Source: Acidobacteriaceae bacterium (GTDB lineage Bacteria > Acidobacteriota > Terriglobia > Terriglobales > Acidobacteriaceae). Taken from it: a DNA stretch of 64,000 bases. Below, piece by piece: positions 19,201 through 43,579 of this stretch. Both the position numbers and the translations under genes were made by a program. Below the pieces are notes generated by a model. It did no database searches. It saw nothing but the letters and a program-made list of their open reading frames with translations, and was not told where the DNA came from. The stretch is taken from the NCBI GenBank assembly GCA_030037545.1, contig JASHRF010000061.1, positions 1 through 64,000 on the forward strand. Reading direction: 5' to 3'. Numbering within the stretch: position 1 is the stretch's first letter; each line of letters starts with the position of its first letter.

Positions 19201-19764
19201 GCTGCCGCTGGCCGATGGCGAGCTGGTGCCGGATGCGGTATCGGTTTGCACTCCGGGAAGGGCCTGAATCACGTTCAGTGGGCTCGTGCCACCGCTCCCG
19301 TAATAGTTTACTGGCAGATTCGATACATTTTGTCCGCTCAGAGTGGCGGAAATCGAAGCCGTTTCGGTGTTGATGGCTCCCGCGGACTCCGCGTTTACGG
19401 TCACCTCTTCCTTCGCGGCCGCCACGGCCAGGGACACGTCCGCTCGTAGCTCCTGCCGCGCCGAGAGCCGAAGGCCCTCAATGAACTTGGTTTCAAAGCC
19501 CGTCTTACTCACCTGAAGCCGGTAGGTTCCAGGCGTGAGTTCCAAAGCCTGGTAATTTCCGCCGGTGTCGGTTTGATAGGTGGCAGTTACTCCTTCGTCG
19601 ACGTTCGTGACCTTGACCGTAGCATCGGGAATCACCGCTCCGCTGGCGTCCTTGACCGTGCCCAGAATAGTCGATTGCGTCGACTGGGCCAGCAAAACCG
19701 GCGTGATCAGGATGGCCACCGCCGCCAGAATATTTTGGAAAGAATGGATTACAGAAAACCGCAC
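16213..19764 (-). CDS. Oar-like TonB-dependent outer-membrane receptor
   Basis: The start is a GTG at 19764 with GGGAGG six bases upstream. The 1183-residue product has a signal peptide (IHSFQNILAAVAILITPVLL), then a carboxypeptidase-regulatory-like beta-sandwich (about 30-110: ILGTVKDASGAVIPDATVKV, GNYQALELTPGTYRLQV). The plug domain is about 125-260 (NVIQALPGVQTDTASG, GGQPSQNEASVDGISTQNVR, AEIRVDGVNNNAEFGQAGEI). A long beta-barrel ends in KVSVKIEF-type residues with a terminal Phe. This is the CarboxypepD_reg/TonB-receptor architecture that acidobacteria use widely for importing sugars, peptides or metals. No TonB box can be assigned. A promoter and palindrome lie upstream, so it is transcribed alone. 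Confidence 0.9.
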   Translation of the reverse strand: MRFSVIHSFQNILAAVAILITPVLLAQSTQSTILGTVKDASGAVIPDATVKVTNVDEGVTATYQTDTGGNYQALELTPGTYRLQVSKTGFETKFIEGLRLSARQELRADVSLAVAAAKEEVTVNAESAGAINTETASISATLSGQNVSNLPVNYYGSGGTSPLNVIQALPGVQTDTASGTSSPSASGSSGNMGFSVQGGQPSQNEASVDGISTQNVRYNIPLADAFPSAESIAEIRVDGVNNNAEFGQAGEITVVSKSGGNQYHGTGFWHFQNSALDATAFGVSVKPQLLGNDFGVSVGGPASIPHLYKGRDRTFFFATYEGFRFPKQTPFQEMVPTADMLSGNFGVEFPTQPVIDPADATPYSNNQVNPISPSAMPFLSLFPAPNFPASAPYTTIAAAQAGAGYNYTANLPSNYDTNQFDARVDHHFSPKALVLARYTFKNITLLDPQNLLVPSITDFDNYRILASSLIYNFTPNLLNEFRFGFTVEENGQRNELNGAPYTDSAAFDPVTAGLPINGETVVDFPSVLTSLYAGNYNQTYQSHLIQYDDNLTWVRGKHTVKMGGDIRDLHSLTTLGNATTTNVEGFAFAGLYTSGYFGALFGQSFSQAAYQFADYLAGTPYETEYFTLVPTDDGATAYYALYGQDQWRVTPRLTLSFGLRYEFDPAMHDTTGTIGNFNPSVATTGEVIYPDGYASKLNSVFLDQFDACGYGPSTTAYAACTPVLSNSQAGLPSGLRHAQTDRFMPRVGLAWRPFNDDKTVVSAGFGIYNTTILGSSFFAMTDTLQAATLYYYNLTSAPYYPPTYTWPQTSPGTAQGYGTAIFSSANQIDWKNPYSMQWNLSFERELKGNIGTRISYVGMRTDDLVYYGDENDMTYSSTTPAESRPLTDRPFPNWGSIADTLNGAQAIYNALEIEGNRRFQHGLTFESAYTWAKNLADNLGPNATSFVGEVGNEATYLHDVPLDYGNVYGTRRQRWISSGLYELPFGRGRAFGANMSRGVDVIVGGWQLSSIFLVQTGPYLTAYIPAGDADPSGTGSGTIHDINQRPDMTGSSIVPANRTRAQWLNPDAFACPSDTGYTATSYAGNDCTVGVHSDPIGRFGNESNGNILGPGTVNLSAGLNKTVAIRENLHLRMEGTFTNVLNHTNLNDPTLDITNVDFGKISSARGSDFGSARTGQVSVKIEF

Positions 19765-19991: not shown

Positions 19992-21179
19992 TCAACGCGG
20001 CACGGCAGGCTCAAGCATTGAATCCATGCAGGTTGGAGGCGTGGTCACCGGGTTGCAACGGGCCGGAAGCTTATCGGGCAAGGCGACAAAATATCCAGAC
20101 CATTTGGCGGGCTCAAACCATGGATAATCGGTGCTTACAATCTGGGCCCCGCTCGCCAGTGCTCTGTCCCGGCGGCGGACATCGCCGCTGCGCGCCTCGG
20201 CAGTATCTGAATCCGCCATGGTGCGCACCAGGTAGCCCTGGCGGACCAGCGCTGCAATGGCCTCTGCGTTTGTGTCGTTCTCCTCGACAAAAGCGGCGTC
20301 AGGATGGCCTGGAGTTGCATTGGTGAAGAGAACGCGCCCGCGCAATGCTGGGTGTCCTTGCAGGTAAATCGGCCCAGCCCAGGCCTGGTCCATGAGAAAG
20401 ATCACCTTACCGCGCGCCTTCCCCAATGTGGGCCAACCATCCTTCCGAACCGCCCGTTCCAGCGTGCGACGGTGTCCGCGCACCTGGTCCGGTGTGATCA
20501 CCTCGTCCTTGGAAAAGACCGATCGGATGGCTGCATCCAGCGCGTCGAAAGTCACGGCCGTGAAATGCTCGGGGATGGTCCAGGGAAAATTCGCATCCGG
20601 CACATCGCGCTTGGTTTCCACCAGAATGAAGATGGGGACGTGGTGCGGATGGGCCTTCGACCAGTTGCGCACCATCTCCAGGCAGGCCGTGAACGGCTGG
20701 CAGTTGCTCGCATAATCCACATCCTGCACGTGCATCACCTTGAAGCCTGCCTTCAGCATCACGCCCTTCGGGTAGGGATCGGGATCGGCGGGCAACCCGG
20801 CCTGCGCAACGAAAACCTGCCCCATCGGATGAGCATAGAGGCCGCCCTTGCTATCGGCGAAGATATCCAGCTCGATCTGCCGGATTCCACGATTCAACTG
20901 CACCGCCAATCCGGCGTGCGCATAATCCAGCTCCGCAAACGCCCTGGGATCTTTCTGTTGCACCAGCTTGGCAATCGAGGGCAGAAGCCCGGCGTGATAG
21001 CTGTTGTGCGTCCCGATCACCTGGATCTGGTTGATCCGAACCGCGTTGTCGCCATCCCCGGCCTGCGCGCTCTGCTGCGCATGGGCAAACATTGCGATCA
21101 TTAAGATTCCAGCCACAGCGACAGCCAACATGGGTGCTCTCACCAAAGCTTTCCCCCTGCCAACATGTTCATTGCTCAT
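19992..21179 (-). CDS. Secreted PI-PLC-like protein (calcium-dependent phosphoinositide phospholipase C family)
   Basis: The ATG at 21179 is chosen because GGGAG lies five bases upstream and it begins just before a signal peptide (APMLAVAVAGILMIAMFAHA). A longer frame to 21293 overlaps the divergent transporter region. Of the 395 residues, key features are IQVIGTHNSYHAG (catalytic His region), RGIRQIELDIFADSKGGLYA (metal-binding acidic cluster), PIFILVETKRDVP and GKVIFLMDQ. These fit the TIM-barrel PI-PLC-C1 group typified by the Streptomyces calcium-dependent enzyme (about 400 aa). Substrate may be inositol phospholipids, GPI-like anchors or another phosphodiester. Its neighbours give no pathway. 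Confidence 0.75.
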   Translation of the reverse strand: MSNEHVGRGKALVRAPMLAVAVAGILMIAMFAHAQQSAQAGDGDNAVRINQIQVIGTHNSYHAGLLPSIAKLVQQKDPRAFAELDYAHAGLAVQLNRGIRQIELDIFADSKGGLYAHPMGQVFVAQAGLPADPDPYPKGVMLKAGFKVMHVQDVDYASNCQPFTACLEMVRNWSKAHPHHVPIFILVETKRDVPDANFPWTIPEHFTAVTFDALDAAIRSVFSKDEVITPDQVRGHRRTLERAVRKDGWPTLGKARGKVIFLMDQAWAGPIYLQGHPALRGRVLFTNATPGHPDAAFVEENDTNAEAIAALVRQGYLVRTMADSDTAEARSGDVRRRDRALASGAQIVSTDYPWFEPAKWSGYFVALPDKLPARCNPVTTPPTCMDSMLEPAVPR

Positions 21180-21421
21180 GTTACTCCCAAACCCGGCCTC
21201 GGCCTCGGAAAACAACCCGAATTCCGCCATTCGCCCTGCTGCTGATTGGCCTGCGTCCGGCGCATGGAAAGTGGGGCATCTGTGATCGAACATCCGATCG
21301 CCATATTATGCTGGAGGCAGTCTTGCCCGCACATCTGGCCTTATGCACGGTTGTGCCGCTTGCGGACCGTCGAAAGGGTAGGTTGGTGTTGAACAGGGTT
21401 CTGCCGCAAAGGCGCGACCGG

Positions 21422-22558
21422 ATGATTCTGCTTCCCGTCGTCGGGGCGCAACTCATTGTCACCACCAGCCTTTTCCTCATGCCGGTTATTATTGACACGC
21501 TCCAGGTTCACGCCGGCCTTTCGGCGAAGGCTGCCGGATCGTTGTTGAGCATGGAGCTCGCCACTTCGGCCCTCACCACTTTATGTGTCTCCGTGTGGCG
21601 CCGCAACCATTCGTCGCGGCATTGGGCATTCGCCGGCGGGCTGCTCACAGTTGCCGCCACTGCGCTCACCCTCATCTCAGCCGCACCACTGCTTCTTTTT
21701 GCCACCCGGTTCCTGGCTGGAGTTGGAGCGGGTGTGGTGGGCGCCGAAGCAACCAGCGTTCTGGCGTGCGGAATCGACCGGGAACGGCTGATCGCGACCG
21801 TGACCATCGTTTCCATTGTTGACGCCGCGTTTTGGCTTGCGGTACTGCCTTACATGATCGACAGCATTGGATATCGGGCGCCCTATGCCTGTCTTCTGCT
21901 CATCTGCTTGAGCGGCACATATCTGTTGCGGCGCCTGCCCTCGTTCTCCATCCGGCAGGGCGCCACTGTGCAGGCTTCCCGGTCACCCTTTGCCGTATTC
22001 GCCGTACTTGTCTTTGCCGCTGTCTTTCTCACCCAGTTGGGGCAAGGCGCATTCTGGAGCATGGAAAGCATTTATGGCAGCAACGCCGGGTTCAACAACC
22101 ATGCCATCGGCATGATCCTTTCCATCGTCACACTGCTCTTGTTGCTCGGCGCCCTCGGGGCGGCGTGGACCGGCAATCGCTTCGGGCGTTTGCCTTCGCT
22201 GCTGACGCTCATCGCAACGAATGCGCTTTCGATCCTTCTCGTCAGCACCATCGCGGTCCACATTGTCTATGTCGCAGCTAACGTTCTGCAGTCGCTCACC
22301 AACCTTTCTTCGGTGATCTATCAACTTGCTTTGGCGGCCAGCCTAGATCGCTCGGGACGGGCAGTCGCGGTGAGCACAGCCCTGGTAACGCTTGGCAATG
22401 GCCTGGGGCCAGGTCTCGCGGCTGGCTTGAGCGCTGGCTTTTCCGCGCCCTCGGTGGGCGTATGTGTTCTCGGTTTCAACGCTGCGGCTTTGGGCTTTTA
22501 TTGCGCGGTCGCATGGCGCCGGATGGCCAGGCCGGAAACATCTGCTACTCTGACGTAA
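21422..22558 (+). CDS. MFS transporter
   Basis: I take the ATG at 21422 (MILLPVVGAQLIVTTSLFLM), preceded by AAAGG nine bases upstream. The open frame extends further left to 21092, but those residues look like non-coding, and start codons at 21309 or nearby cannot be excluded. The 378-residue protein has about twelve hydrophobic helices with the weak A-loop CVSVWRRNHSSRHWAFAGGL between helices 2 and 3, and the typical GxxPGLAAGLSAGF-like ending (LGNGLGPGLAAGLSAGFSAP). Substrate is unknown; sugars or aromatic compounds are common for this size. It is divergent from the PI-PLC-like gene with 242 bases between. Confidence 0.75.
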   Translation: MILLPVVGAQLIVTTSLFLMPVIIDTLQVHAGLSAKAAGSLLSMELATSALTTLCVSVWRRNHSSRHWAFAGGLLTVAATALTLISAAPLLLFATRFLAGVGAGVVGAEATSVLACGIDRERLIATVTIVSIVDAAFWLAVLPYMIDSIGYRAPYACLLLICLSGTYLLRRLPSFSIRQGATVQASRSPFAVFAVLVFAAVFLTQLGQGAFWSMESIYGSNAGFNNHAIGMILSIVTLLLLLGALGAAWTGNRFGRLPSLLTLIATNALSILLVSTIAVHIVYVAANVLQSLTNLSSVIYQLALAASLDRSGRAVAVSTALVTLGNGLGPGLAAGLSAGFSAPSVGVCVLGFNAAALGFYCAVAWRRMARPETSATLT

Positions 22559-22665: not shown

Positions 22666-24087
22666 ATGAATGACGACCTGACCAATACGGATGTGATTAA
22701 TACGGCCGAAGCGATCTTGCCGGAGCGCCGTCTTGAGAGACTGCGAACCGTTGTCGACGCCGGCATGGCGCGCTCCTTTTCGTGGCGCAAGACTCAACTC
22801 GACGGGCTGCTGCGTTTTGTCGAGGACCATCAAACGGCCATGCTTGAAGCCCTGAAAGCGGACCTGGGTCGTTGCCCAACCGAAGCCCGCCTGGTAGACG
22901 TCACCATGGTCTGCGCCGAGATACAACGTATGCGGCGCCATCTGCGCAAATGGTTGCGGCCCCGTTTTGTTCACACTCCCCTTGCGGCGCAGCCGGGAAA
23001 AAGTTGGATCGAGCAGGAGCCATTTGGCTTGGCGCTGATCCTGGGCACGTGGAACTATCCGTTTCAGCAGATTCTCCTTCCGCTTGCCGGAGCGCTGGCC
23101 GCCGGCAATGCCGCGGTGGTCAAGCTGAGTGAGGTTGCGCCGCGCGCCGCTGCGCTGATGGCCGCGCATTTGGAGCATTACGTCGATCCGGAGGCAGTCA
23201 TCGTCATTACCGGCGGTCCGGAAACAGCTTCGCAACTTCTCGAATTCCGGTTTGACAAGATTTTTTTCTCCGGCCAGAGCCGCGTGGGCCGGATCGTGAT
23301 GGCCGCGGCCGCGGCTCACTTGACGCCTGTGACCCTCGAACTGGGCGGGAAAAATCCGGCGCTCCTTGCCCCCGATTGCCCACTCGAGGTCGCCGCTCGG
23401 CGCATTGCCTGGGGCCGCTTCATGAACGCTGGCCAGCTTTGTGTGGCGCCCGATTATGTCCTGGCGCCGGAACCGCTGCGTCTGCCTCTGATCGCTGCCC
23501 TGCAACGGGCCATAAAACGCTTTTATGGGCCCGACCCGCAGCGCAGCGACTCCTTTGCGCGCATTGTTAATCAGCGTCATTTTCAAAGGTTGCTGGCGCT
23601 CATGCACGATGGCCGCATTGCCGTCGGGGGCCAGTCGGATCCGGCCGACTTGTATATTGCGCCCACCGTGCTTACCGATTTGCCCGGCCATGCCGCGGTT
23701 CTCGAAGAAGAGATCTTCGGCCCCATACTGCCGGTTGTCGGGTACGCAGAAATCGAAGATGCCCTGGCCTTTGTCAGGCAACGGCCCAAACCGCTGGCGC
23801 TCTACCTCTTCACCAGGAATCGCAGGTTGCAGCAACAGGTGATTCGCGGCACAAGTTCAGGGAGTGTTGTAGTAAACGACGTCCTGGTCAACCAGATTGT
23901 CCCCGGCCTTCCCTTTGGCGGCGTCGGCAGCAGCGGGATGGGCGCCTTTCACGGCCGCTACACGCTTGACGCTTTTTCCCATGCCAAAGCCGTGGTGCGC
24001 CGGTCGTTCCGCGCCGATATCGACGCGCGCTATCCGCCCTTCAGCGAGATGAAGGACCAGCTTTTGACCTGGCTGATTTCCCGGTAG
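22666..24087 (+). CDS. Aldehyde dehydrogenase, ALDH3-like
   Basis: The 473-residue enzyme lacks the long N-terminal extension of ALDH1/2 and fits the ALDH3 or fatty/coniferyl aldehyde type (about 450-480 aa). Visible are EQEPFGLALILGTWNYPF (cofactor binding), LELGGKNP with the general base Glu at about 225, and FMNAGQLCVAPDYVLAP with catalytic Cys about 259. The FSGQSRVG and FGGVGSSGMGAFHGRYTLDA motifs complete the family pattern. It oxidises an aldehyde to the acid with NAD(P). The next gene on the opposite strand, a TetR regulator, overlaps its 3' end by 47 bases; such pairs can be co-regulated. Confidence 0.9.
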   Translation: MNDDLTNTDVINTAEAILPERRLERLRTVVDAGMARSFSWRKTQLDGLLRFVEDHQTAMLEALKADLGRCPTEARLVDVTMVCAEIQRMRRHLRKWLRPRFVHTPLAAQPGKSWIEQEPFGLALILGTWNYPFQQILLPLAGALAAGNAAVVKLSEVAPRAAALMAAHLEHYVDPEAVIVITGGPETASQLLEFRFDKIFFSGQSRVGRIVMAAAAAHLTPVTLELGGKNPALLAPDCPLEVAARRIAWGRFMNAGQLCVAPDYVLAPEPLRLPLIAALQRAIKRFYGPDPQRSDSFARIVNQRHFQRLLALMHDGRIAVGGQSDPADLYIAPTVLTDLPGHAAVLEEEIFGPILPVVGYAEIEDALAFVRQRPKPLALYLFTRNRRLQQQVIRGTSSGSVVVNDVLVNQIVPGLPFGGVGSSGMGAFHGRYTLDAFSHAKAVVRRSFRADIDARYPPFSEMKDQLLTWLISR

Positions 24088-24802
24088 ATTTTGCTTTGCG
24101 AGCGGCGGCGCCGCGGCGGGCCTTTCTTTCTCCGCGGAGTGAAGAGGCACGGCCGCTTAACGTCACGGAATCGATGAGCAGAGAAATCGCCGCCTTTAAA
24201 GAAAGCAGGACGCGGGCACGATGCGGCTCGGGGAGGGTGAGAGCGAGACGCGTGGTGGCGCTGGCTGTCTCGATTGCGATCAAGGCGCAGTCGTAAACGG
24301 CGCTGGGGTTCGATCCGGGATACATCTTCTGCAATGCGCCGGCGATAACTCGGGCATTTTGAAGTGTGTCCTCGACATTGAGCGCGCGCAGCTCGATGGA
24401 TGCGGCGACGCAACTCCATATTTCGATGAATGCGGGGTTGGAGGCCTGCAGCTCGGCCATCCGATCAATAATGATCCCGATCAGGCTGTTCGACTCATTC
24501 TTGCCTTCCTTGATGGCGTTGCGTATGCCAACGGCCAAAGTCTCGGAAATTGCGGACGTGTAACGAGTCCACATCTCGCGCACAATGGCCAGTTTCATGG
24601 GGAAATACTGGTATACCGAAGCAATCGGCATCTTGGCCTCGCGCGCAATTTCGCGCATGGAAACTGCTTCATAGCCACGCGCTGCGAACAGGCGAAGAGC
24701 GGTTTCCAATACGCTTTCAAATCGGGCCTGGCTGCGCTCCTGGCGTGGGATCCGTTTGACTTGCGTTCTGCTTTCGACATCGAACATCGATCGTTTCTTC
24801 AT
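24041..24802 (-). CDS. TetR-family transcriptional regulator
   Basis: The 253-residue product from the ATG at 24802 has the TetR helix-turn-helix at about 20-65 (RQERSQARFESVLETALRLF, then AARGYEAVSMREIAREAKMP and IASVYQYFPMKLAIVREMW). A helical ligand-binding region and a Lys/Arg-rich tail (RGERKARRGAAARKAKSTGK) follow. An in-frame ATG at 24787 is an alternative start. The C-terminal basic tail is coded within the overlap with the aldehyde dehydrogenase 3' end. It may regulate the convergent dehydrogenase or the divergent operon, but the LacI-type palindrome upstream of the latter does not look TetR-like. Confidence 0.85.
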   Translation of the reverse strand: MKKRSMFDVESRTQVKRIPRQERSQARFESVLETALRLFAARGYEAVSMREIAREAKMPIASVYQYFPMKLAIVREMWTRYTSAISETLAVGIRNAIKEGKNESNSLIGIIIDRMAELQASNPAFIEIWSCVAASIELRALNVEDTLQNARVIAGALQKMYPGSNPSAVYDCALIAIETASATTRLALTLPEPHRARVLLSLKAAISLLIDSVTLSGRASSLRGERKARRGAAARKAKSTGKSARSKAGPSSR

Positions 24803-25100
24803 GTGATTGGCCCGCGTGCGCAATTTCGCTTCCCGGCAATCGAACCTGCCCCGCCAAATTTGTCTATGAATTGCCACGGTACGGGTATTCCGCTCCGTTG
24901 CTCCGACCCCGCCGGGTTTCTCAATTTCTGCGCAGAATCGGCGTATCGCTCATCAAATAGACCATACACCATCCGTCAACAGTCAAAAGAAGCGGCCATC
25001 CAGCAGGCACATCTGGCTCCAGTTCTGCAGCAGGCACCCACGCGTCCGTGGCCTGGATCTGAAAGCCGGCGGATAGCGGTAAGCAGAGCCGGCTCCTCTA

Positions 25101-25297: not shown

Positions 25298-26899
25298 ATG
25301 GTGGTCGGGCACCACAACCGATTTGCACTCGCCGTCGACCTGGGGACCACGGGTTGCAAATCTGCATTGGTAGCTCCTGACGGAGCCGTCCACAAGTGGG
25401 CCTTCCGTCCTGTTCCCTTGCACCTCGTCGATCAGATTGGCGCTGAGCAGGACCCGGAAGATTGGTGGAGCGCATTCCTCAGCTCCGCGCAGGAACTCAT
25501 CGGTTCTTTGCCCGCGTTGGACGGAGAAATCGCCGCCATTTGTTGCTCCTGCCAGGGAGAATGCATCATCCCTGTCGATCGGGACGGCCGTCCCTTGCAA
25601 CGCGCGATGTCATGGATGGATATGCGTGGGGCCGAGATGATTCGCCGCCGTGCTGGAAATCGGGCGTTTTCCGTGGCCGGCTACGGCCCCATGAAATTGC
25701 TGCACTGGATCCATCGCGCCGGCGGCGCTCCGGCTCTCTCGGGAAAAGATTCTGCGGGACACATCGCCTTCATCAAAGAGACGCGGCCGGCCATCTACGA
25801 TCGAACCTATAAGTTTTTCAATGCCCTCGACTATATGAACCTGCGCCTCACCGGCCGGTTCGTCGCCACGGTAGACTCGATCCTTACCTCCTGGGTCACT
25901 GACAACCGCAACGCCTCCAATATCCGCTATGACAAAAAACTTGCTGGCCAATCCGGCATCGACTTGGAGAAACTGCCGGAAATTGTCCGCTGCACCGATG
26001 TGCTTGGCCCTCTTTGCCCTTCGGCTGCTGCACAGCTCGGGCTGCCGCGCGACACGCCGGTAGTTGCGGGCGCCGTGGACAACTCCGCCGCAGCCATCGG
26101 GTCCGGGGCCATTCGGGATGGTGAAGCTCACCTCTATCTAGGTACGTCTTCCTGGGTGGGCGCGCATGTCCCCTTCAAGAAGACCGATGTGTTTGCGCAG
26201 ATTGCCTCTGTGCCTTGCGCTATAAGCGGGCGCTACCTGGCCGTCGCTCTACAGTCCTCAGCCGGCTCTAATCTTTCTTTTCTGTTCGACAAGATCCTCT
26301 TCCATCCCGATGAGTTCGGCACGGAGCGGCCGTCCGATGTCTATTCCATTTTGGAAATAGTCGCGGCCTCCGTTCCGCCAGGCGCTCGCGGCTTGCTGTA
26401 CACGCCCTGGATCTTCGGAGAACGCAGTCCGGTCGATAATTCGAGTTTGCGGGCCGGTCTGCTCAATCTATCCCTCGAGCACTCTCGCGCAGACATGATC
26501 CGCGCCATCCTTGAAGGCATAGCTTTGAACACGCGCTGGATGGTCACGCCTTTCAATCGTTTTCTCGGCAAGCGGCTCGGCCAAATCACCATGGTCGGCG
26601 GAAGTGCGGCCTCTGACGTCTGGTGCCAGATCTTCGCCGACGTACTCGGCATTACCGTTCGGCAAGTCGAGTCTCCTATCCAGGCAAATGCAGTGGGAGC
26701 GGCTCTTATCGGCTTGGTAGGGATCGGCGCTCTATCTTACGACAATGTCCCGGAGATGATCAAAATTCGCCGCACCTATCTGCCCGATTCTGGACGCAAG
26801 GCCATTTACGACGATCTCTTCGATGCTTTCAGACTTGCCTATCGGCGTCTGGCGCCGTTGTACCGAAAGTTGAATCTCTCCGGCAAGGTGCGCCCATGA
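25298..26899 (+). CDS. FGGY-family carbohydrate kinase
   Basis: The 533-residue kinase starts AVDLGTTGCKSALVAPDG (phosphate-1 loop) and has the FGGY_N fold with SWMDMRGAEMIRR. FGGY_C has PVVAGAVDNSAAAIGSGAI and ALNTRWMVTPF-type substrate segments, then ITMVGGSAASDVWCQIFADV and QANAVGAALIGLVGIG. GAGGG seven bases upstream of the ATG supports the start. FGGY enzymes phosphorylate pentoses, polyols or ketoses (xylulose, rhamnulose, fuculose, erythritol); xylulokinase-like is the closest general impression. ATGA overlap with the class II aldolase makes phosphorylated ketose the likely aldolase substrate. A rhamnulokinase role is possible given RhaA and RhaT elsewhere in the window. Confidence 0.85.
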   Translation: MVVGHHNRFALAVDLGTTGCKSALVAPDGAVHKWAFRPVPLHLVDQIGAEQDPEDWWSAFLSSAQELIGSLPALDGEIAAICCSCQGECIIPVDRDGRPLQRAMSWMDMRGAEMIRRRAGNRAFSVAGYGPMKLLHWIHRAGGAPALSGKDSAGHIAFIKETRPAIYDRTYKFFNALDYMNLRLTGRFVATVDSILTSWVTDNRNASNIRYDKKLAGQSGIDLEKLPEIVRCTDVLGPLCPSAAAQLGLPRDTPVVAGAVDNSAAAIGSGAIRDGEAHLYLGTSSWVGAHVPFKKTDVFAQIASVPCAISGRYLAVALQSSAGSNLSFLFDKILFHPDEFGTERPSDVYSILEIVAASVPPGARGLLYTPWIFGERSPVDNSSLRAGLLNLSLEHSRADMIRAILEGIALNTRWMVTPFNRFLGKRLGQITMVGGSAASDVWCQIFADVLGITVRQVESPIQANAVGAALIGLVGIGALSYDNVPEMIKIRRTYLPDSGRKAIYDDLFDAFRLAYRRLAPLYRKLNLSGKVRP

Positions 26900-27555
26900 A
26901 CTTCGATCAACCCCGTCGCGAAGTGGTTGCAACCTGTCTGCAATTGGCCGATAAAGGATATCTCGCGGGAACCGCCGGAAACGTCGCCTGCCGCATCGAC
27001 ACTGAGCATTTTGCCGTTACCCCCACAGCAACCGACTATTACGTCATGAGGCCGGATGATATCTGCGTGCTCCGCCTGGACAATCTTGTGTGCGTCGCCG
27101 GAGACCGACGGCCTTCTATCGAACATAGGCTGCATGCCCATCTTCTTCGTGCGCGACGGGATTGCCGCGCCAGCATCCATACCCATCAGCCCATTGCTAG
27201 CGCCTATACACTGTTGGGGCGCGCATTGGACATTCAATGTCCGGCGTATCAACTCCCACTGGGGCAAGAGGCTGCCTTGGTGAGCTACGCGCCATCGGGC
27301 ACTAGCCGGCTGGCGTCGAAATTGCGAGAGGCGATTCGGCCTGAAATCAATGCCTATCTACTGTGCAACCACGGCGTGGTCTGCTGCGGTCCCACGCTGA
27401 GCGAAACGGTGGCCAGGTTAGAAACTCTGGAGTTGGCCTGCGCCGCCTTTTTTCGCGATGCCATCGTTGGCCGGGCAAGCCTGGGTAGCGATCCCTCGTT
27501 GTCCGAGGTTCTGAAGCAGTTACTCAACTGCGAAGATTTGGAGTGTGTGCAATGA
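26896..27555 (+). CDS. Class II aldolase/adducin-family protein with intact active site
   Basis: The ATG at 26896 overlaps the kinase stop; the frame is open further left but that part lies inside the kinase. The 219-residue protein shows E76 (RPSIEHRLHAHL), H95 and H97 (IHTHQP) and H159 (LLCNHG). These spacings match the nucleophilic Glu and zinc His ligands E73/H92/H94/H155 of L-fuculose-1-phosphate aldolase, so the zinc site is complete. Such enzymes cleave phosphorylated ketoses or epimerise ribulose phosphate. Overlap with the kinase and the aminotransferase supports one pathway. The exact substrate, possibly a phosphorylated deoxyketose or pentulose, cannot be deduced. Confidence 0.85.
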   Translation: MNFDQPRREVVATCLQLADKGYLAGTAGNVACRIDTEHFAVTPTATDYYVMRPDDICVLRLDNLVCVAGDRRPSIEHRLHAHLLRARRDCRASIHTHQPIASAYTLLGRALDIQCPAYQLPLGQEAALVSYAPSGTSRLASKLREAIRPEINAYLLCNHGVVCCGPTLSETVARLETLELACAAFFRDAIVGRASLGSDPSLSEVLKQLLNCEDLECVQ

Positions 27556-29036
27556 TGACACCAGGCACTACTCTGCCGTTGTCGGAGACCGATGTGTCGA
27601 GTTCCACGTACGGCATTTCAGAATGGCCCGACACCAAAGACCTGTACGCACGTCTCGCAGAACTTGTGAAGCAGCCGATGCGGCCCATCCGCCGCGGAAA
27701 GATGGAGGCCGTTCTTCAATATTTCGAACAAAAGTGCGATCGGTCGCGGCATCTGGCAGAGCAGGCGAAGCAATTCATTCCTGGCGGCATACAACACAAC
27801 CTGGCTTTCAACTATCCATTTCCGCTGGCCATGACCAGCGCCAACGGCGCCTGGCTAACCGATGTCGATGGGAACCGCTATATCGACTTTCTCAAGGCAG
27901 GAGGGCCAACGCTGCTTGGCGCCAACGATGCCACAGTGCGCCGCCAAGTGCACGATCTCCTCGACTCTTGCGGCCCCGTAACCGGCCTGTTCCATGAGTA
28001 CGAGGTCAAGTTGGCCGAGTTAGTCTGCAGAGCGATGCCTTCCATCGAGATGCTGCGGATGCTGGGCTCCGGGACAGAAGCTGTGATGGCGGCGCTGCGC
28101 CTGGCGCGAGCCTATACCGGCCGAAAATGGGTGATCAAGATCGGCGGCGCATACCACGGCTGGAGCGACCAGATGGTGTATGGCATGCGCATTCCCGGCA
28201 CCGGGCGCAGAGAGGCCGTCGGCATTCCCCGAGCTTGCACAGCTTATACCCAGGAACGATTCCCGAACGACCTGGACGCTTTGCAGCGAACCCTGTGGAT
28301 CAATCGGCTGAGAGGTGGTACTGCCGCAATTATCGTCGAGCCGCTGGGGCCGGAGAGTGGCACCCGCCCTGTGCGCCGGGACTTCAACAGCGGATTGAGG
28401 AAGCTCTGTGACGATTTTGGCGCCCTGCTGATCTTCGATGAAGTCGTAACCGGCTTCCGCGTGGGCATGGGTGGTGCGCAGGGATATTTTGGCGTGAAGC
28501 CAGACCTGACCGTGCTGGGAAAATGCCTCACCGGCGGTTACCCTATGGCGGGCGGCATCGGTGGACGCCGCGACGTGATGATGTTGCTGGCGGGCGGCAT
28601 TGGGAATACTTCGAAGCGGGCCTTTGTAGGCGGAACTCTGAGCGCCAATCCGCTCTCCTGCGCCGCCGGTTATTTCGCCATTCAAGAGATGCAGCGAGCC
28701 GGCGCCGTAGTGAAGGCTGGACGCGCGGGAGACCGATTGCGTAAAGGGCTCGGCGAAATCATTAGCCGTCTGGGTTTGCCGTTTGTCACGTACAACCTGG
28801 GCCCCATCGTCCATCTGCAAACTTCGGGCGTCATGCTCATGAGCATGCGCAATCCTCTCAAAGTGATGAGAGAGGCAGAGAGCCGCAAGCACATGCTGGA
28901 AGAGATGGGGGCGGCTTTCACGGCGCATGGAGTCATCACTCTGGCAGGCAGCCGTATCTATACCGGGCTTGCCGATACCGATGCGGTGATCGACGATGCG
29001 CTGAGCCGCTTTGAGGACGTGCTGAAGCTGGTTTGA
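27552..29036 (+). CDS. Class III (glutamate-1-semialdehyde-like) PLP aminotransferase
   Basis: The ATG at 27552 overlaps the aldolase stop (ATGA). The 494-residue protein carries an N-terminal extension of about 70 residues before the class III fold: FIPGGIQHNLAFNYPFPLAM, DVDGNRYIDFLKAGGPTLLG, RMLGSGTEAVMAALRLARAY. The PLP aspartate is in LLIFDEVVTGFRVG (D about 296) and the Schiff-base lysine in TVLGKCLTGGYPMAGG (K about 324). It resembles glutamate-1-semialdehyde 2,1-aminomutase-like aminotransferases used on amino-keto compounds. In this operon it could aminate an aldehyde or keto product of the aldolase, an unusual combination with a sugar kinase. A role in tetrapyrrole synthesis is unlikely given the context. 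Confidence 0.85.
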   Translation: MMTPGTTLPLSETDVSSSTYGISEWPDTKDLYARLAELVKQPMRPIRRGKMEAVLQYFEQKCDRSRHLAEQAKQFIPGGIQHNLAFNYPFPLAMTSANGAWLTDVDGNRYIDFLKAGGPTLLGANDATVRRQVHDLLDSCGPVTGLFHEYEVKLAELVCRAMPSIEMLRMLGSGTEAVMAALRLARAYTGRKWVIKIGGAYHGWSDQMVYGMRIPGTGRREAVGIPRACTAYTQERFPNDLDALQRTLWINRLRGGTAAIIVEPLGPESGTRPVRRDFNSGLRKLCDDFGALLIFDEVVTGFRVGMGGAQGYFGVKPDLTVLGKCLTGGYPMAGGIGGRRDVMMLLAGGIGNTSKRAFVGGTLSANPLSCAAGYFAIQEMQRAGAVVKAGRAGDRLRKGLGEIISRLGLPFVTYNLGPIVHLQTSGVMLMSMRNPLKVMREAESRKHMLEEMGAAFTAHGVITLAGSRIYTGLADTDAVIDDALSRFEDVLKLV

Positions 29037-29048
29037 TTGGGGGCGAAT

Positions 29049-29711
29049 GTGCTGCGAGCACAGATTGAAACGCAAATGCTGGAGGGATGCCGGCGGCTTG
29101 CCGGTAAGGGATTCTTCAACACCCCGGGTGACAGCTTTTCCATGCGCATTCCCGGCAGCACGGAGATGATTCTCGCCACCGGCCATGAGGATTGGCGGCA
29201 GATTGAAATCGCCGATTTCCACGCAATTTCCCTTTCCTCAAAAGAACGTTTAGATGGACTCCACGCATCCATCTACCGGGCGCGTGCCGATGTTGGTGCA
29301 GTGGCGATTTCCAGCCCCATGGGCGCACGTCTGCTGGCCGGGCATGGTGGTCTTTTGCCGCCCATCTTCGATGAACAGATAAGGCATCTCGGTCCACCTG
29401 CCGGACCCCTGTGCAACGAGGATACGCATGAACTTATAGCAGGAAGAGCATGCAAACGGGGCGCCAATGCCGCGCTGCTTGGCGAGCGGTTGATCTGCAT
29501 GGGAATGACCTGCGACCGCGTTGTTTTCAACACCGAACTTTATGAGAAATGCGCGCGCGCCTATGTCATAGCCAAAGCATCCGGCAGCCCCATCGGGCTT
29601 ATACCGCTTTGGGTTCGGCTGATCGCAAACCGTCGCCTATTAAAAGACGAGCGTCGCGCCGCCCTAAGTTATCGCAACGGCTGTATTCCTGAGGGCATCG
29701 ATGCATATTGA
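29049..29711 (+). CDS. Aldolase-fold protein lacking the class II metal site (pseudo-aldolase)
   Basis: I take the GTG at 29049 (GGGGG six bases upstream); a TTG at 29037 is equally possible. The 220-residue product keeps the class II aldolase/adducin framework (LAGKGFFNTPGDSFSMRIPG, LHASIYRARADVGAVAIS, the final helices). However, the H-x-H motif reads I87-S88-S89 (AISSPMG), and the third His region reads GERLICMG with E146. The nucleophile position also reads Leu in my alignment. It therefore cannot bind zinc as its upstream neighbour does. It may be a regulatory or structural partner of the active aldolase, or have a new reaction. Codon use looks like its neighbours. Confidence 0.7.
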   Translation: MLRAQIETQMLEGCRRLAGKGFFNTPGDSFSMRIPGSTEMILATGHEDWRQIEIADFHAISLSSKERLDGLHASIYRARADVGAVAISSPMGARLLAGHGGLLPPIFDEQIRHLGPPAGPLCNEDTHELIAGRACKRGANAALLGERLICMGMTCDRVVFNTELYEKCARAYVIAKASGSPIGLIPLWVRLIANRRLLKDERRAALSYRNGCIPEGIDAY

Positions 29712-29787
29712 GATCAGCCACAAACCGGTGCGCGCAGGCTCGATATCGCCGAATCGCATAAAGGATCATAACTCGGGAAGGATTACC

Positions 29788-31440
29788 ATGCTTATTTGTT
29801 TGCGCGTACACAACAATCTTCAACTTCGTCTTATAGTAGCGCGCCTTGCTTGTGGCCTGTTGCTTCTTCTCGCCAGTTCTGCCGCCGGCGCCGCGGCTTC
29901 CGCCGCCAAACCAATTCCAAGAATCGAGAAGACAGGCAACTCTATCCGGCTTCTTGTTGATGGCAGCCCGTATCTGATGCTGGGCGGCCAGGTTCACAAT
30001 TCCGACTCGTCGAATGCCGATGACCTCAATCAGGCTCTGGATGTACTCGCCGCCTGGCATGCCAATACCGCCGAAGTGCCCATCTATTGGGAGACGATTG
30101 AACCCAGGCCCGGTCAATTCGATTTCAGCTCCATCGATCTCGCCATTCAGGCCGCACGCAAGCGCGACCTGCATCTTGTATTGCTTTGGTTCGGCACGTG
30201 GAAAAATGGTGAGAGTCAATACGTGCCCGAGTGGGTGAAGCGCGACCGGCAAAAGTATGTGCGCGTGCAGGGCCCGCGCGGGGAGGAGACGAAAATCATT
30301 TCTCCTCTTTGCCGCGCCGTCATGATGGCCGACGCGCATGCGTTCGCTGCGGTGATGCAGCACGTAAAGAGCGTCGACCGGACGGAACGCACCGTTCTGA
30401 TGATGCAGGTGGAAAACGAGCCGGGGCTCATCGGCGTGGACCGGGACTACTCAGATGCCGCCAACCGCCTGTTCGACGCACCGGTGCCCAACCAGTTGCT
30501 CAGCTACCTCGCGAGCCATCGCCGGCGACTTTCAGCGCCCATGGCCGTGGTGTGGAGCAAATCGCCGCAGTCGGGCAATTGGAAGCAAGTCTTCGGTGAG
30601 CTGGCGCCGGAGGCATTCAGCGCATGGCTGGTCTCGAATTACGTGAATACCGTTGCGGCTGCCGGCAAGCAGGAGTACCCGCTGCCCATGTACGTCAATG
30701 TCTGGCTGATCGAAGGAGTTGAGCGTGCAGGCATGTGGCCGAGCGGCGGCGCTACCGTGAATGTGATGGACATCTGGAAGGCGGCAGCGTCTGCCATTGA
30801 CATCCTGGCGCCGGACATCTATTACCCCAAGTTTTACGATGTGGCCGCGCAATACACGCGGCCCGATAACTCACTCTTCGTGCCCGAGACGAATTTCAAT
30901 CCCTACTTCGTTGGCTTTGCCTATACCACGTTTGGCGATTTCAACGGAATCGGTTTCAGCCCTTTCGGGATTGACGATGCTCAAAAAGGTGGACGGGCAG
31001 CAATAGTTGGCGCGGAGTTTGAGGACACCTATCGCGTGCTGCGGCCTCTGCTTCCACTCATCGCCCGCTACCAATACACCGGCAAGCTCCACCCCATCCT
31101 GCAGGGACTGGCAAATGGAGAAGACTGGAAGGAGTCCATTCGCGTGGGTAATGGGTTGGCTGCAAACATTGACTTCACTGCCACGTTTGACCCTGTAAAG
31201 GGCAGGGCCAGCGGCATGATCATCGAACTGGCGCCCGACGATTTCGTCATCATGGGCACCGGATTCGATGTAACCTTCCGCGAGATGGAAGGCCCACTCC
31301 GCGATGCGGAGCTGATTTCCATTGAGGAGGGCACCTTTCAGGGCGACCGATGGGTGCCGTCTCGCCTTTTGAACGGCGACGAAGCACATGTATCGTTGCC
31401 TGAAAAGTCCACCATCTTGCGCGTGCGAGTCTTGCGATAG
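29788..31440 (+). CDS. DUF5597/GH35-like secreted beta-galactosidase-type glycosidase
   Basis: The ATG at 29788 is preceded by GGAAGGA five bases upstream and opens a signal peptide (LRLIVARLACGLLLLLASSA). The longer frame starting at 29701 is less likely. The 550-residue enzyme has a GH-A TIM-barrel: GQVHNSDSSNADDLNQALDV, NTAEVPIYWETIEPRPGQFD, LVLLWFGTWKNGESQYVPEW and MMQVENEPG with the acid/base Glu. A region PDIYYPKFYDVA and VPETNFNP has the probable nucleophile Glu, then a C-terminal beta domain. This is the GH35-like group with DUF5597 at the end. It would release galactose or similar sugar in the periplasm or outside. It follows the pseudo-aldolase in the same operon. Confidence 0.8.
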   Translation: MLICLRVHNNLQLRLIVARLACGLLLLLASSAAGAAASAAKPIPRIEKTGNSIRLLVDGSPYLMLGGQVHNSDSSNADDLNQALDVLAAWHANTAEVPIYWETIEPRPGQFDFSSIDLAIQAARKRDLHLVLLWFGTWKNGESQYVPEWVKRDRQKYVRVQGPRGEETKIISPLCRAVMMADAHAFAAVMQHVKSVDRTERTVLMMQVENEPGLIGVDRDYSDAANRLFDAPVPNQLLSYLASHRRRLSAPMAVVWSKSPQSGNWKQVFGELAPEAFSAWLVSNYVNTVAAAGKQEYPLPMYVNVWLIEGVERAGMWPSGGATVNVMDIWKAAASAIDILAPDIYYPKFYDVAAQYTRPDNSLFVPETNFNPYFVGFAYTTFGDFNGIGFSPFGIDDAQKGGRAAIVGAEFEDTYRVLRPLLPLIARYQYTGKLHPILQGLANGEDWKESIRVGNGLAANIDFTATFDPVKGRASGMIIELAPDDFVIMGTGFDVTFREMEGPLRDAELISIEEGTFQGDRWVPSRLLNGDEAHVSLPEKSTILRVRVLR

Positions 31441-31485
31441 TTGATCGACGATAAGATGAAGAAGATTTATAGGAGAGACCGCTCT

Positions 31486-33825
31486 ATGAAACTTTTCCCT
31501 TTTTGCCCGGTTGGGTCGTTCTCTGTTTCTTTTTCTCGCTTAATAAGATCCGCGCCCTCGCTCATCGTTTTGGCCGTGCTGGCCTGCGCCGCTTGGGCGC
31601 AAAATTCTTCGCCTGGTCCCGCTGCCAGTGTCCATCCGCTCATTGGCACTGGCACCGGTCCAGGAGGGAGCATCAACTTGTTTCCCGGCCCGGCAACGCC
31701 TTTTGGCATGGTGCAGCTAAGTCCCGATACCGAGGACCACGGCTACGGCTACCACTATAATGACCCCTTTGTGGGCGGTTTCAGCATGACCCACATGAGC
31801 GGTCCCGGCTGCCCCAATGAAGGTGATGTATTCTTCACCGCCACAACCGGGCCGATCCACACCACCAAAGAGGATTTCGCATCGCCATACTCGCACGCCA
31901 TGGAGACTGCCAGGCCGGGCTACTACCAGGTGCGTCTGCTGGAGTGGAATATCAACGCCGAGTTGAGCGCCACCGACCACACCGGTATCGCCCAATTTAC
32001 GTTTCCCCCCGGCCAGCCCGCGAACATCCTGCTTCCCATCAGCCAAACGCTGAATTACACCACCGGCGCTTCGGTCCAGGTGGTCGGCGACAACCAAGTC
32101 CAGGGCTACGTCGAGGACCGCGCGTTCTGTGGCAGCCAACGAACCTATAAGGTCTACTTCGTCATGACCTTCAGCAAGCCGTTCTCGTCTTACGGCACAT
32201 GGACTGGAGCCAAATACGGCGGACCGGGGGCCATCGCCGCAGGCAGCCGCATCGCCGAACAGTCCGGCCATGAGGAATGGGTAGGCGCGTACGCCACGTG
32301 GCCGGCCGAGCCGCATGCGCAGACCATCACCGCAAAGATTGCCATCTCCTACGTCGATTCCGACGGCGCCGAAAACAACTTGAAGACCGAAGCTGCCGGC
32401 AAGGATTTTTCCGCCATCCGCAGCCAGGCGCAGGCCGCATGGAATAGAGCGCTGGGCGTAATCGACGTCTCCGGCGGCACCGAGGCCGAGCGCACCGTCT
32501 TCTACTCCGCGCTCTATCATTCGCTGCTGATGCCCAGCATCTTCAGCGATGCCGACGGCCGCTACCTCGGCTTCGACGGCCAGATTCACGCCGTGACTCA
32601 GGGCCACGCCGTCTACGCCAACTATTCCGGCTGGGACATTTACCGCAGCGAGATTCCGCTGCTGGCCATGATCGAGCCGCGGCGCATGGAAGACATGGCG
32701 CAGTCCGTGGTGCTGATGTACCAACAGGGCGGCTGGGTGGGGCGCTGGCCGCAGATCAACCTCTATACCAACGTGATGGCCGGCAGCCCGCTCACCGTCG
32801 CGCTGGCTACGGCCTGGCTCGACGGCCTGCACGGCTTCGACATGACTGCCGGCTGGGATGGCATGTTCAAGGACGCCACCCAGGCGCCGGCGCCCGGCCA
32901 CCCCTACACCGGCGAGGACGGCATCGACTGGATCAACAAGCTCCATTACGTGCCAGACGACAAGATCGGTTATGGCTCCGTCTCGCAGATTCAAGAGGAC
33001 GCCATCGCCTACGCGTCCCTCTACCGCGTCGCCGTTGATCTGGGCAAAACCGCCGAAGCTAAGACCCTTTACGACCGCGCCCTCAACTACCGCAATGTCT
33101 TCGACCAGGACGATCGCTTCTTCCGTCCGCGCGACTCCAACGGTCAGTGGTCTCCCAACTTCGATCCCGCACAGGAAGACCATGGGTTCATCGAAGGCAC
33201 TGGATGGCATTACCAGTGGCTCGAGCCCGCGGATATGGCGTGGGTGGTCAATGCCATGGGCCGCGGCCTCTTCAATCAGCGTCTCACGGAGTTCTTCAAC
33301 TACCCCGCACCCGGCTGGTACGGCAAGTACTACAACCCTTACAACGAAACCGACCTCGAAGCACCCTTTGCTTTCAACTTCTCCAGCCGGCCGTGGGAAA
33401 CGCAGCGCGTGGTCCGGCGCGTTCTCAATGAGAACTACACTGACGATCCCAATGGCATCCCCGGCAACGACGATTGTGGCGAGATGTCCTCATGGGCGGT
33501 GCTGAGCATGATGGGCATCTACAGCGTAGACCCGGCGAGCCTGGCCTACGAATTGGTTGCCCCGGTGTTTCCGAAGGCGGTCATCCATCTCCACGAGCCG
33601 TACGCCGGCAAAACTTTCACCATCGAAGCCGGCGGCGCGGCGCCCGGCGCGGCATATATCCAGAAGGTCGAGCTCGACGGCCGCGCGCACACGCAGAACT
33701 GGATCTCGTTCAAAGCCATCTCCGCCGGCGGGACATTGCGCTTCGTACTCGGGACCACCCCCAATCGGGCATGGGGCGCCGCGCCGGCCGATGCGCCGCC
33801 TTCGTTCAGCGAAGTCCAGCCATGA
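31486..33825 (+). CDS. GH92 secreted alpha-1,2-mannosidase
   Basis: The ATG at 31486 follows AGGAGA and precedes a signal peptide (SLIVLAVLACAAWA). The 779-residue protein carries GH92 landmarks: VHPLIGTGTGPGGSINLFPG, TPFGMVQLSPDTEDHGYGYH, FSMTHMSGPGCP, GWDIYRSEIPLLAMIEPRRM, GWDGMFKDA and GNDDCGEMSSWAVLSMMGIY, with the last Glu being the general acid of calcium-dependent exo-alpha-mannosidases. It would trim alpha-mannose from glycans such as yeast mannan or high-mannose N-glycans, or related substrates. It is the last gene of the operon, 45 bases after the GH35-like gene, and connects the operon to mannan or glycoprotein degradation. Confidence 0.9.
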   Translation: MKLFPFCPVGSFSVSFSRLIRSAPSLIVLAVLACAAWAQNSSPGPAASVHPLIGTGTGPGGSINLFPGPATPFGMVQLSPDTEDHGYGYHYNDPFVGGFSMTHMSGPGCPNEGDVFFTATTGPIHTTKEDFASPYSHAMETARPGYYQVRLLEWNINAELSATDHTGIAQFTFPPGQPANILLPISQTLNYTTGASVQVVGDNQVQGYVEDRAFCGSQRTYKVYFVMTFSKPFSSYGTWTGAKYGGPGAIAAGSRIAEQSGHEEWVGAYATWPAEPHAQTITAKIAISYVDSDGAENNLKTEAAGKDFSAIRSQAQAAWNRALGVIDVSGGTEAERTVFYSALYHSLLMPSIFSDADGRYLGFDGQIHAVTQGHAVYANYSGWDIYRSEIPLLAMIEPRRMEDMAQSVVLMYQQGGWVGRWPQINLYTNVMAGSPLTVALATAWLDGLHGFDMTAGWDGMFKDATQAPAPGHPYTGEDGIDWINKLHYVPDDKIGYGSVSQIQEDAIAYASLYRVAVDLGKTAEAKTLYDRALNYRNVFDQDDRFFRPRDSNGQWSPNFDPAQEDHGFIEGTGWHYQWLEPADMAWVVNAMGRGLFNQRLTEFFNYPAPGWYGKYYNPYNETDLEAPFAFNFSSRPWETQRVVRRVLNENYTDDPNGIPGNDDCGEMSSWAVLSMMGIYSVDPASLAYELVAPVFPKAVIHLHEPYAGKTFTIEAGGAAPGAAYIQKVELDGRAHTQNWISFKAISAGGTLRFVLGTTPNRAWGAAPADAPPSFSEVQP

Positions 33826-37565: not shown

Positions 37566-37731
37566 GTCCTTTACGCTGGGCGGTTCTCGAATTAGTCCAA
37601 CCGGCTCACGCGCCCTCGAGAATACGCCGGACGGCCGTAATGAGTGCCCGGCTCTAGATCGGCACCCACTCAGTACAGCGTTGGGAATGCAACCGTCAGT
37701 GTGAGAGACTCTTTATTTGAAGGAGTCGATT

Positions 37732-37794: not shown

Positions 37795-37844
37795 CCTTTA
37801 TCTCGCGCGCAGCGGTTTTGATTTAGCTTTCAGGAATCCTCAGG

Positions 37845-43507: not shown

Positions 43508-43579
43508 GCCAATGCCACTCCTTTCACGGTTAACGTGAGGCCGGATGCGAGACGCAGCGAGACTCCGGAGGCGATGGGA

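What the first reader, a model, noticed from the sequence alone, without database searches (positions are those of the whole stretch)
25298..33825. Operon uniting a sugar kinase, aldolase, class III aminotransferase and two secreted glycosidases
The first three genes overlap by ATGA, implying one metabolic route: kinase phosphorylates a ketose, class II aldolase cleaves it, and a GSA-like aminotransferase acts on an aldehyde or keto product or precursor. I know of no described pathway pairing these enzymes with GH35-like and GH92 enzymes. The glycosidases suggest the starting material is a mannose- or galactose-containing glycan, or a modified sugar.
Basis: partly seen in the sequence, partly recalled or inferred. 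Interest (0 to 1): 0.7.

Follow-up and report, generated by a model that had tools for sequence, protein, structure and literature searches.

The report
Probable bacterial phytosphingosine-degradation operon
An apparently undescribed group of bacterial genes seems to take apart a plant and fungal membrane lipid base (phytosphingosine) as if it were a sugar, and in many bacteria it probably does so with an aldolase whose active site is shared between two complementary subunits.

Summary
The genes are real. Kinase and aldolase overlap by ATGA, as do aldolase and aminotransferase. It also missed an upstream fatty-aldehyde-type dehydrogenase, a transporter and a regulator. The block kinase-aldolase-aminotransferase recurs across Acidobacteriota, Proteobacteria, Chloroflexota and Thermoleophilia, where aldolase and aminotransferase can be fused. 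GH92 is not conserved with it; GH35 only within Acidobacteria.

In Proteobacteria the block often lies beside homologues of sphBCD and SphR, the sphingoid-base metabolism genes and sensor of Pseudomonas, or beside FadL-type lipid porins. Best reading: catabolism of phytosphingosine, a 2-amino-1,3,4-triol. The aminotransferase makes the 2-ketone, the kinase phosphorylates C1, the fuculose-phosphate-type aldolase cleaves C3-C4 to DHAP plus a long-chain aldehyde, and the dehydrogenase oxidises it.

The two aldolase genes show complementary loss. Single-copy aldolases carry zinc ligands and an FDEQ motif at the place of FucA Tyr113, a residue donated by the neighbouring subunit. In two-gene loci one protein keeps the zinc ligands, the other FDEQ. 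This predicts a heteromeric aldolase. No chemistry was tested. The glycan interpretation is not supported. My open-access paper searches found no description of this pathway.

The parts
25298..26899 (+). FGGY-family kinase (KIN); predicted to phosphorylate C1-OH of 2-keto-phytosphingosine
   Evidence: Pfam FGGY_N 6.4e-33 and FGGY_C 1.4e-28; best NCBIfam match XylB, below its cut-off; KIN matches in 66 of 80 loci, mostly 46-78% identity, 31-36% in some, mainly Chloroflexi; substrate inferred
26896..27555 (+). Class II aldolase, zinc subunit (ALD)
   Evidence: Pfam Aldolase_II (the 310-aa ORF given there starts upstream at 26623); nearest solved structures 6btd and FucA; metal ligands E,H,H,H and phosphate-site Asn in 75 of 75 rows; lacks FDEQ
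27552..29036 (+). Class III aminotransferase (AT), GSAM fold; predicted to deaminate C2 of phytosphingosine
29037..29711 (+). Aldolase-like partner subunit without metal ligands (PSA), keeps FDEQ and EKC motifs; TTG start assigned
   Evidence: Pfam Aldolase_II 9.1e-07; AlphaFold pLDDT 90.8, nearest 6btd and FucA; HxH in 0 of 35 and FDEQ in 34 of 35 PSA rows
22666..24087 (+). Class 3 (fatty-aldehyde-type) aldehyde dehydrogenase
   Evidence: Pfam Aldedh; top PDB matches are ALDH3-type, including fatty aldehyde dehydrogenase 4qgk at 8.8e-125; benzaldehyde DH 2e-84; 69% orthologues beside the module in two of four acidobacterial loci
21371..22558 (+). MFS transporter (ORF listed from 21092; orthologues align from about 21371)
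   Evidence: Pfam MFS_1 3e-16; 55-73% in four acidobacterial loci; no PDB match at E 1 or better
24041..24877 (-). TetR-family regulator, divergent from KIN
   Evidence: Pfam TetR_N 6.1e-15; 66-77% in four acidobacterial loci
29788..31440 (+). Secreted GH35 / DUF5597 glycosidase, linked in Acidobacteria only
   Evidence: NCBIfam GH35_fam 577.4 bits, cut-off 500; PDB beta-galactosidases including Bgl35A; present at 77-81% in three of four comparison loci
16213..19764 (-). Oar/TonB-type outer-membrane protein, linked in Acidobacteria
   Evidence: Pfam OMP_b-brl_4 9e-183; 58-71% by segment in four comparison loci
19992..21293 (-). PI-PLC-C1 family phospholipase-like protein
   Evidence: Pfam PF16670 1.5e-131; syntenic in one of four comparison loci
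31486..33825 (+). GH92 glycosidase: a neighbour, not part of the conserved module
   Evidence: Pfam GH92 1.5e-147; no orthologue at this place in the four comparison loci; one 30% relative elsewhere in L015

Best explanation
The conserved module (kinase, zinc aldolase, aminotransferase, aldolase-like partner, with a class 3 aldehyde dehydrogenase) degrades sphingoid bases, most likely phytosphingosine. Step 1: the aminotransferase converts the 2-amino-1,3,4-triol head to a 2-ketone, in effect a 5-alkyl-5-deoxy-D-ribulose. Step 2: the FGGY kinase phosphorylates C1. Step 3: the fuculose-phosphate-type aldolase cleaves C3-C4 to DHAP plus a long-chain aldehyde (tetradecanal plus one carbon, that is pentadecanal, from the C18 base). 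Step 4: the dehydrogenase oxidises the aldehyde to a fatty acid. In Acidobacteria and Proteobacteria the aldolase is predicted to be a heteromer: ALD brings the zinc and phosphate site, PSA the residue that reaches in from the neighbouring subunit. Shown here: the genes, conserved order, fusion, sph/SphR linkage and complementary motif loss. Inferred: every reaction, the substrate and the heteromer.
For: Order and fusion: ALD by AT in 75 of 80 loci, KIN too in 64 of 80; single ALD-AT frames in L092, L096, L098, L099. Sphingoid link: an ALO plus Ala_racemase_N pair, with a cytochrome c in three cases, matches the domain make-up printed for sphBCD. Of 53 AT genomes searched, 10 have the racemase-type protein and 8 of these the pair; in 5 of the 8 (two of them strains of Agrobacterium vitis) it lies 6-18 kb from AT. 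In 40 Pseudomonas-genus genomes SphC is in 11, AT in 5, both in 4 (Fisher 0.015), 3.3 and 4.1 kb apart in two. One AraC regulator, of a cluster found in 17 AT loci, has the sph-locus AraC as best hit in 4 of 5 Pseudomonas genomes; in the fifth its best hit lies by another AT module. SphBC matters for growth of P. aeruginosa with phytosphingosine (PMC11893366, abstract and passages). Lipid link: FadL-type gene within 10 kb in 12 of 30 genomes, about 0.2 expected; ALDH of the fatty-aldehyde class. Chemistry: FucA cleaves C3-C4, Tyr113' of the next subunit deprotonating the C4-OH (PMC11841055 passages). Heteromer: FDEQ in 41 of 41 single-copy ALD, 0 of 34 ALD with partner, 34 of 35 partners; HxH in 41 of 41, 34 of 34, 0 of 35; the Asp of FDEQ aligns with the FucA Tyr in 4 of 5 alignments shown, the next Glu in the fifth.
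Against: No reaction was assayed. Neutral ceramidase is not enriched: 1 clear hit in 37 AT genomes, none in the own genome, so the source of free base is unexplained. The window and the other acidobacterial AT genomes searched have no SphD-like gene, and the window uses a TetR, not the SphR homologue; the link to them is by orthology. In 43 of the 53 AT genomes no SphD-like match was found. Chloroflexi loci showed no lipid-specific neighbour; one of their MFS proteins resembles choline/ethanolamine carriers. The full double SphR site scores below P 0.05 upstream of KIN in only 2 of 16 AraC loci. A perfect half-site is there in 10 of 16, all rhizobial and so not independent, against 2 of 41 others; L025, L027, L029, L032, L047, L052 and the Pseudomonas locus L156 lack it. 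Linkage counts include related strains. GH35 linkage in Acidobacteria could point to a glycosidic substrate.
Confidence: 0.68

Rival explanations
1. The module degrades a small hydrophilic 2-amino polyol or amino sugar by the same chemistry, and the lipid neighbours are incidental.
For: FGGY kinases and FucA-type aldolases act on sugars; GH35 is linked in Acidobacteria; a Chloroflexi MFS beside the module resembles choline/ethanolamine carriers.
Against: sphBCD and SphR homologues, FadL porins and fatty-aldehyde-class ALDH recur beside it in several lineages; the GSAM NSPVRAF segment is replaced by a conserved aromatic one.
Confidence: 0.17
2. It protects against antimicrobial sphingoid bases rather than feeding on them, perhaps acting on several bases.
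For: SphBC is important for growth of P. aeruginosa in the presence of sphingosine, sphinganine and phytosphingosine (PMC11893366, abstract and passages).
Against: A full route to DHAP and a fatty acid is more than detoxification needs; sphingosine and sphinganine lack the C4-OH that this aldolase type uses (chemistry of the bases recalled; mechanism).
Confidence: 0.08
3. The module is biosynthetic: the aldolase condenses DHAP with a fatty aldehyde and the aminotransferase makes a phytosphingosine-like base.
For: DHAP aldolases are used in the synthetic direction (PMC11274987 passages); a Butyrivibrio plasmid has KIN, ALD and AT next to a GtrA-family gene.
Against: Transporters, outer-membrane proteins, divergent regulators and an aldehyde dehydrogenase suggest catabolism; a kinase is not obviously needed in that direction.
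Confidence: 0.07
4. PSA is not a subunit of the aldolase but a separate enzyme or binding protein (a rival to the heteromer only).
For: It has its own set of invariant residues in 34 rows, including FDEQ and a last Tyr.
Against: Its FDEQ and EKC motifs are those of the single-copy aldolase that ALD has lost, and it follows AT in the loci that have it.
Confidence: 0.2

Closest known systems
SphR regulon / sphBCD of Pseudomonas aeruginosa (PMC3900636, PMC5150637, PMC11893366; passages seen)
   Same: Shared neighbourhoods in several Proteobacteria, related AraC regulator, probably the same class of substrate
   Different: sphBCD is predicted to encode a cytochrome c, a periplasmic oxidase and a threonine-aldolase-like enzyme, with the product unknown; the present module is an aminotransferase, a sugar-type kinase and a zinc aldolase
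5-deoxyribose salvage / DHAP shunt (PMC6079011, start of abstract in the search listing only)
   Same: Kinase plus class II aldolase on a deoxypentose; the predicted substrate here is the same skeleton with a long alkyl tail (inference)
   Different: There an isomerase makes the ketose; here an aminotransferase would, and the aldehyde would be long-chain
Eukaryotic phytosphingosine degradation (recalled: base kinase, S1P lyase, alpha-oxidation with Mpo1)
   Same: Same starting lipid; both would end in an odd-chain fatty acid
   Different: There the base is phosphorylated first and cleaved at C2-C3 to phosphoethanolamine; here C3-C4 would be cleaved to DHAP
[quoted passage not shown]
   Same: Fold, metal ligands, phosphate-site Asn, active site between subunits
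   Different: FucA is a homotetramer; here the two halves of the site are predicted to sit on two proteins, with Asp/Glu in place of Tyr113
FumI, fumonisin (aminopentol) aminotransferase 6hbs/6hbv

Membership tests
FucA-type class II aldolase | Metal ligands Glu + three His in ALD | tested here: met
   75 of 75 rows
FucA-type class II aldolase | Trans-subunit acid/base residue (Tyr113 position) in the same protein | tested here: not met
   ALD of two-gene loci lacks FDEQ in 34 of 34; it is in PSA. Single-copy ALD has FDEQ in 41 of 41 but Asp/Glu, not Tyr
FucA-type class II aldolase (PSA) | Metal ligands | tested here: not met
   HxH in 0 of 35 PSA rows; at single ligand columns E in 6, H in 0, 1 and 5 of 35
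FGGY kinase | Both FGGY domains over the Pfam cut-off | tested here: met
FGGY kinase, xylulokinase XylB | NCBIfam equivalog cut-off | tested here: not met
   228.8 bits against 380.25
Glutamate-1-semialdehyde aminomutase | NCBIfam cut-off for hemL | tested here: not met
   281.7 bits against 527.3; NSPVRAF segment not kept
Class 3 / fatty aldehyde dehydrogenase | Closer to ALDH3-type chains than to other ALDH | tested here: met
   ten best PDB sequences 4.6e-126 to 7.2e-110, next (benzaldehyde DH) 2e-84
SphR regulon | AraC regulator homologous to SphR beside the module | tested here: met
   For Proteobacteria only: one AraC cluster in 17 loci; a member hits sph-locus AraC proteins at 39-43%. 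Not so in the window, which has TetR
SphR regulon | Two direct half-sites TGNCCSNNRNNSNCC upstream | tested here: inconclusive
   Double site P below 0.05 in 2 of 16; single perfect half-site in 10 of 16; controls worked upstream of sphB in 4 of 5 and of sphA in 2 of 3
SphR regulon | Induction by sphingoid bases | not testable with these tools
   needs expression data
DHAP shunt (5-deoxyribose salvage) | Isomerase gene in the cluster | tested here: inconclusive
   Only isomerase seen near is L-rhamnose isomerase RhaA, 13 kb from AT on the other strand, with no match in the fetched acidobacterial stretches; other loci were not searched for isomerases

The most novel reading that the evidence does not exclude
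Bacteria of several phyla share a dedicated phytosphingosine pathway that handles a membrane lipid as a sugar: transamination to a long-tailed deoxyribulose, C1 phosphorylation and retro-aldol cleavage to DHAP and a fatty aldehyde. In two phyla the aldolase has become an obligate heteromer whose two subunits each lost the opposite half of the active site.
Probability: 0.55. Interest if true: 0.9.

Novelty: new variant of a known kind. Interest (0 to 1): 0.8.

Why it matters
Phytosphingosine is a major base of plant and fungal sphingolipids (recalled), and how soil and rumen bacteria break it down is, as far as my searches went, undescribed. The module gives a testable enzyme-by-enzyme route for genes seen here in 80 examined loci, out of 460 candidate relatives, and bears on the open question of what bacteria make from sphingoid bases. 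The split aldolase would be a clear natural case of an interface active site divided by duplication and complementary loss.

Tried and rejected
Glycan route: rejected because GH92 is not conserved and GH35 is linked in Acidobacteria only. Ceramidase co-occurrence (PF04734): 150 of 399 class genomes match, mostly weakly, own genome none; of 37 AT genomes 2 match, 1 over the cut-off; no support. Mpo1-like PF06127: adjacent in the Burkholderia plasmid only among the loci searched; 17 of 53 AT genomes, following taxonomy; dropped. The SphD-like hit in Pseudomonas P818 (L129) has no ALO partner and was not counted as sph; G436 has a SphD-like gene on the AT contig about 20 kb away but no ALO found and was not counted. 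For G455 and G468 the oxidase was recognised by clustering with L049 and L043, not by a new search. L062 was first counted as a PSA locus; the tree put it with single-copy aldolases and it was removed. The SphR site scan of the Pseudomonas AT locus gave nothing. The Pfam sweep of flanking genes (105 proteins given, of 122 listed by my script and 187 candidates) gave only a few lipid-type families: DUF1302 2, FadL 2, DUF1329 1. The window MFS has no solved relative. The Butyrivibrio ALD has no FDEQ, and no PSA gene is annotated beside it; it fits neither class. Paper searches found no description of this pathway in their listings; most subscription papers are not held.
Full report
What is there. 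The window holds, on the + strand, an FGGY kinase (KIN, 25298-26899), a class II aldolase (ALD, 26896-27555) and a class III aminotransferase (AT, 27552-29036), neighbours overlapping by ATGA. Next come a GH35-type and a GH92 glycosidase. Upstream lie an MFS transporter, an aldehyde dehydrogenase and a divergent TetR regulator.

How conserved it is. Close aminotransferase orthologues (80-86%) are rare in the window's own group: one other (G035) among the 60 genomes and four others among the 399, both counts including the own genome. Four acidobacterial loci keep the order KIN-ALD-AT-PSA with MFS, TetR and an outer-membrane protein; GH35 is in three of the four, an orthologous ALDH in two, GH92 in none at that place. 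A scan of named genomes gave 460 candidate relatives, of which the best 80 were kept, at 65-86% identity, from Acidobacteriota, Proteobacteria, Chloroflexota and Thermoleophilia. Of these 80, 75 have ALD on the same strand within 2.5 kb and 64 also have KIN within 8 kb. In four Thermoleophilia/Actinomycetota loci ALD and AT are one reading frame (L092, L096, L098, L099). Plasmids of Burkholderia ambifaria and Butyrivibrio fibrisolvens carry KIN, ALD and AT together; two IS5-family transposase genes lie around the Burkholderia copy, one between its regulator and MFS genes, the other beyond its ALDH.

What its neighbours say. In four loci a D-arabinono-lactone-oxidase gene (in two of them only its cut end, recognised by clustering) is followed by an alanine-racemase-N gene near the module. 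A paper on P. [quoted passage not shown] I searched the racemase-type protein in 53 AT genomes: 10 match. Eight have the oxidase beside it, and in five of those, two being Agrobacterium vitis strains, the pair lies 6-18 kb from AT. Three of the eight have the cytochrome too, two by Pfam and one by its CxxCH motif. In Rhodoferax (L137) KIN, ALD, AT, PSA, MFS, epimerase-like gene, ALDH, cytochrome, oxidase and racemase run in one direction. In 40 Pseudomonas-genus genomes, the AT-bearing centre among them, 11 have SphC, 5 have AT and 4 have both (Fisher p 0.015); in two of the four they are 3.3 and 4.1 kb apart. These look like genuine sph loci: the published SphR double site stands upstream of sphB in four of five tested and of sphA in two of three.

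The regulator. An AraC gene with an Arabinose_bd domain is found near the module in 17 loci. I ran one of them, from L032, against five Pseudomonas genomes. In four the best hit is the AraC of the sph locus (E 1e-71 to 1e-78; next best 1e-32 to 1e-56). In the fifth the best hit (1e-91) lay elsewhere, and fetching that place showed another KIN-ALD-AT-PSA module with an ALDH. In L155 sphBCD, this AraC and the module lie side by side. The full double SphR site upstream of KIN beats shuffles at P below 0.05 in only 2 of 16 AraC loci. A perfect half-site 119-149 bases upstream of the KIN match is there in 10 of 16 against 2 of 41 others, but the ten are all rhizobial.

The lipid link. FadL-family genes lie within about 10 kb of AT in 12 of 30 proteobacterial genomes, with about 0.2 expected from 52 copies in 155 Mb; counted as two of twelve lineages (my own grouping) the chance is 0.003. 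The window's ALDH is nearest to class 3 chains, fatty aldehyde dehydrogenase among them. A Chloroflexi transporter resembles choline/ethanolamine carriers. SphBC is important for growth of P. aeruginosa with phytosphingosine (PMC11893366, abstract and passages).

The split aldolase. [quoted passage not shown] Single-copy ALD proteins have the zinc ligands and a motif FDEQ whose Asp aligns with the FucA tyrosine in four of the five alignments printed; in the fifth (6btd) it is the next Glu. FDEQ is present in 41 of 41 single-copy ALD, 0 of 34 ALD from loci with PSA, and 34 of 35 PSA (the exception, L090, lies on a 3-kb contig and covers only part of the protein). HxH is present in 41 of 41, 34 of 34 and 0 of 35. 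EK[CSVA][AS] is present in 41 of 41, 0 of 34 and 33 of 35 (L062, a single-copy aldolase first counted as PSA, is removed). Mean identity is 34.5% between single-copy and ALD, 30.3% between single-copy and PSA, and 17.9% between ALD and PSA (L062 still included). ALD of two-gene loci forms one clade (100/100), and the 35 PSA lie on one side of a 100/100 branch; the bootstrap had not settled. A Burkholderia plasmid and a Pseudomonas locus outside these rows show the same split. The PSA model (pLDDT 90.8) has an aldolase fold. I read this as duplication followed by complementary loss, so that ALD and PSA should form a heteromer with a shared site.

What does not fit. No neutral ceramidase enrichment; no SphD-like gene in the six acidobacterial AT genomes, nor in 43 of the 53 searched in all; no lipid-specific neighbour noticed in Chloroflexi; the role of GH35, the outer-membrane protein and PI-PLC in Acidobacteria is unknown, though glycosylated or inositol-phosphate sphingolipids would be one explanation (speculation). 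Butyrivibrio has an ALD of neither type.

Verdict. The best reading is a phytosphingosine catabolic module with a predicted heteromeric aldolase, resting on gene context and motif patterns and not on assays.

Noticed in passing
window 42215-45031 (-): L-rhamnose isomerase RhaA and rhamnose transporter RhaT.
   Followed up: no
window 34310-40307 (+): Gluconate-2-dehydrogenase subunit 3-like, GMC oxidoreductase, cytochrome c3/c7-like and PQQ dehydrogenase genes in a row.
   Followed up: no
L092, L096, L098, L099: Natural ALD-AT fusion frames in Thermoleophilia/Actinomycetota MAGs.
   Followed up: partly
L113:19500-19751 (-): DUF962 (Mpo1-like) gene beside the module on a Burkholderia ambifaria plasmid; yeast Mpo1 acts in phytosphingosine degradation (recalled).
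   Followed up: partly
L114:13643-14542: Butyrivibrio plasmid aldolase with zinc motif but no FDEQ and no annotated partner, and a longer C-terminus.
   Followed up: no
L050, L057, L058, L059, L061, L077, L078, L093: Some Chloroflexi loci carry a more distant FGGY kinase (32-36%) in place of the usual one of about 50%.
   Followed up: no
L135:7059-10643, L136:9693-13269: In two Rhizobium genomes the oxidase-racemase (sphCD-like) pair elsewhere in the genome is preceded by the MFS family that follows the AT module in Dyella and Rhodoferax.
   Followed up: partly
window 5463-7064 (-): MASE1-GGDEF diguanylate cyclase.
   Followed up: no
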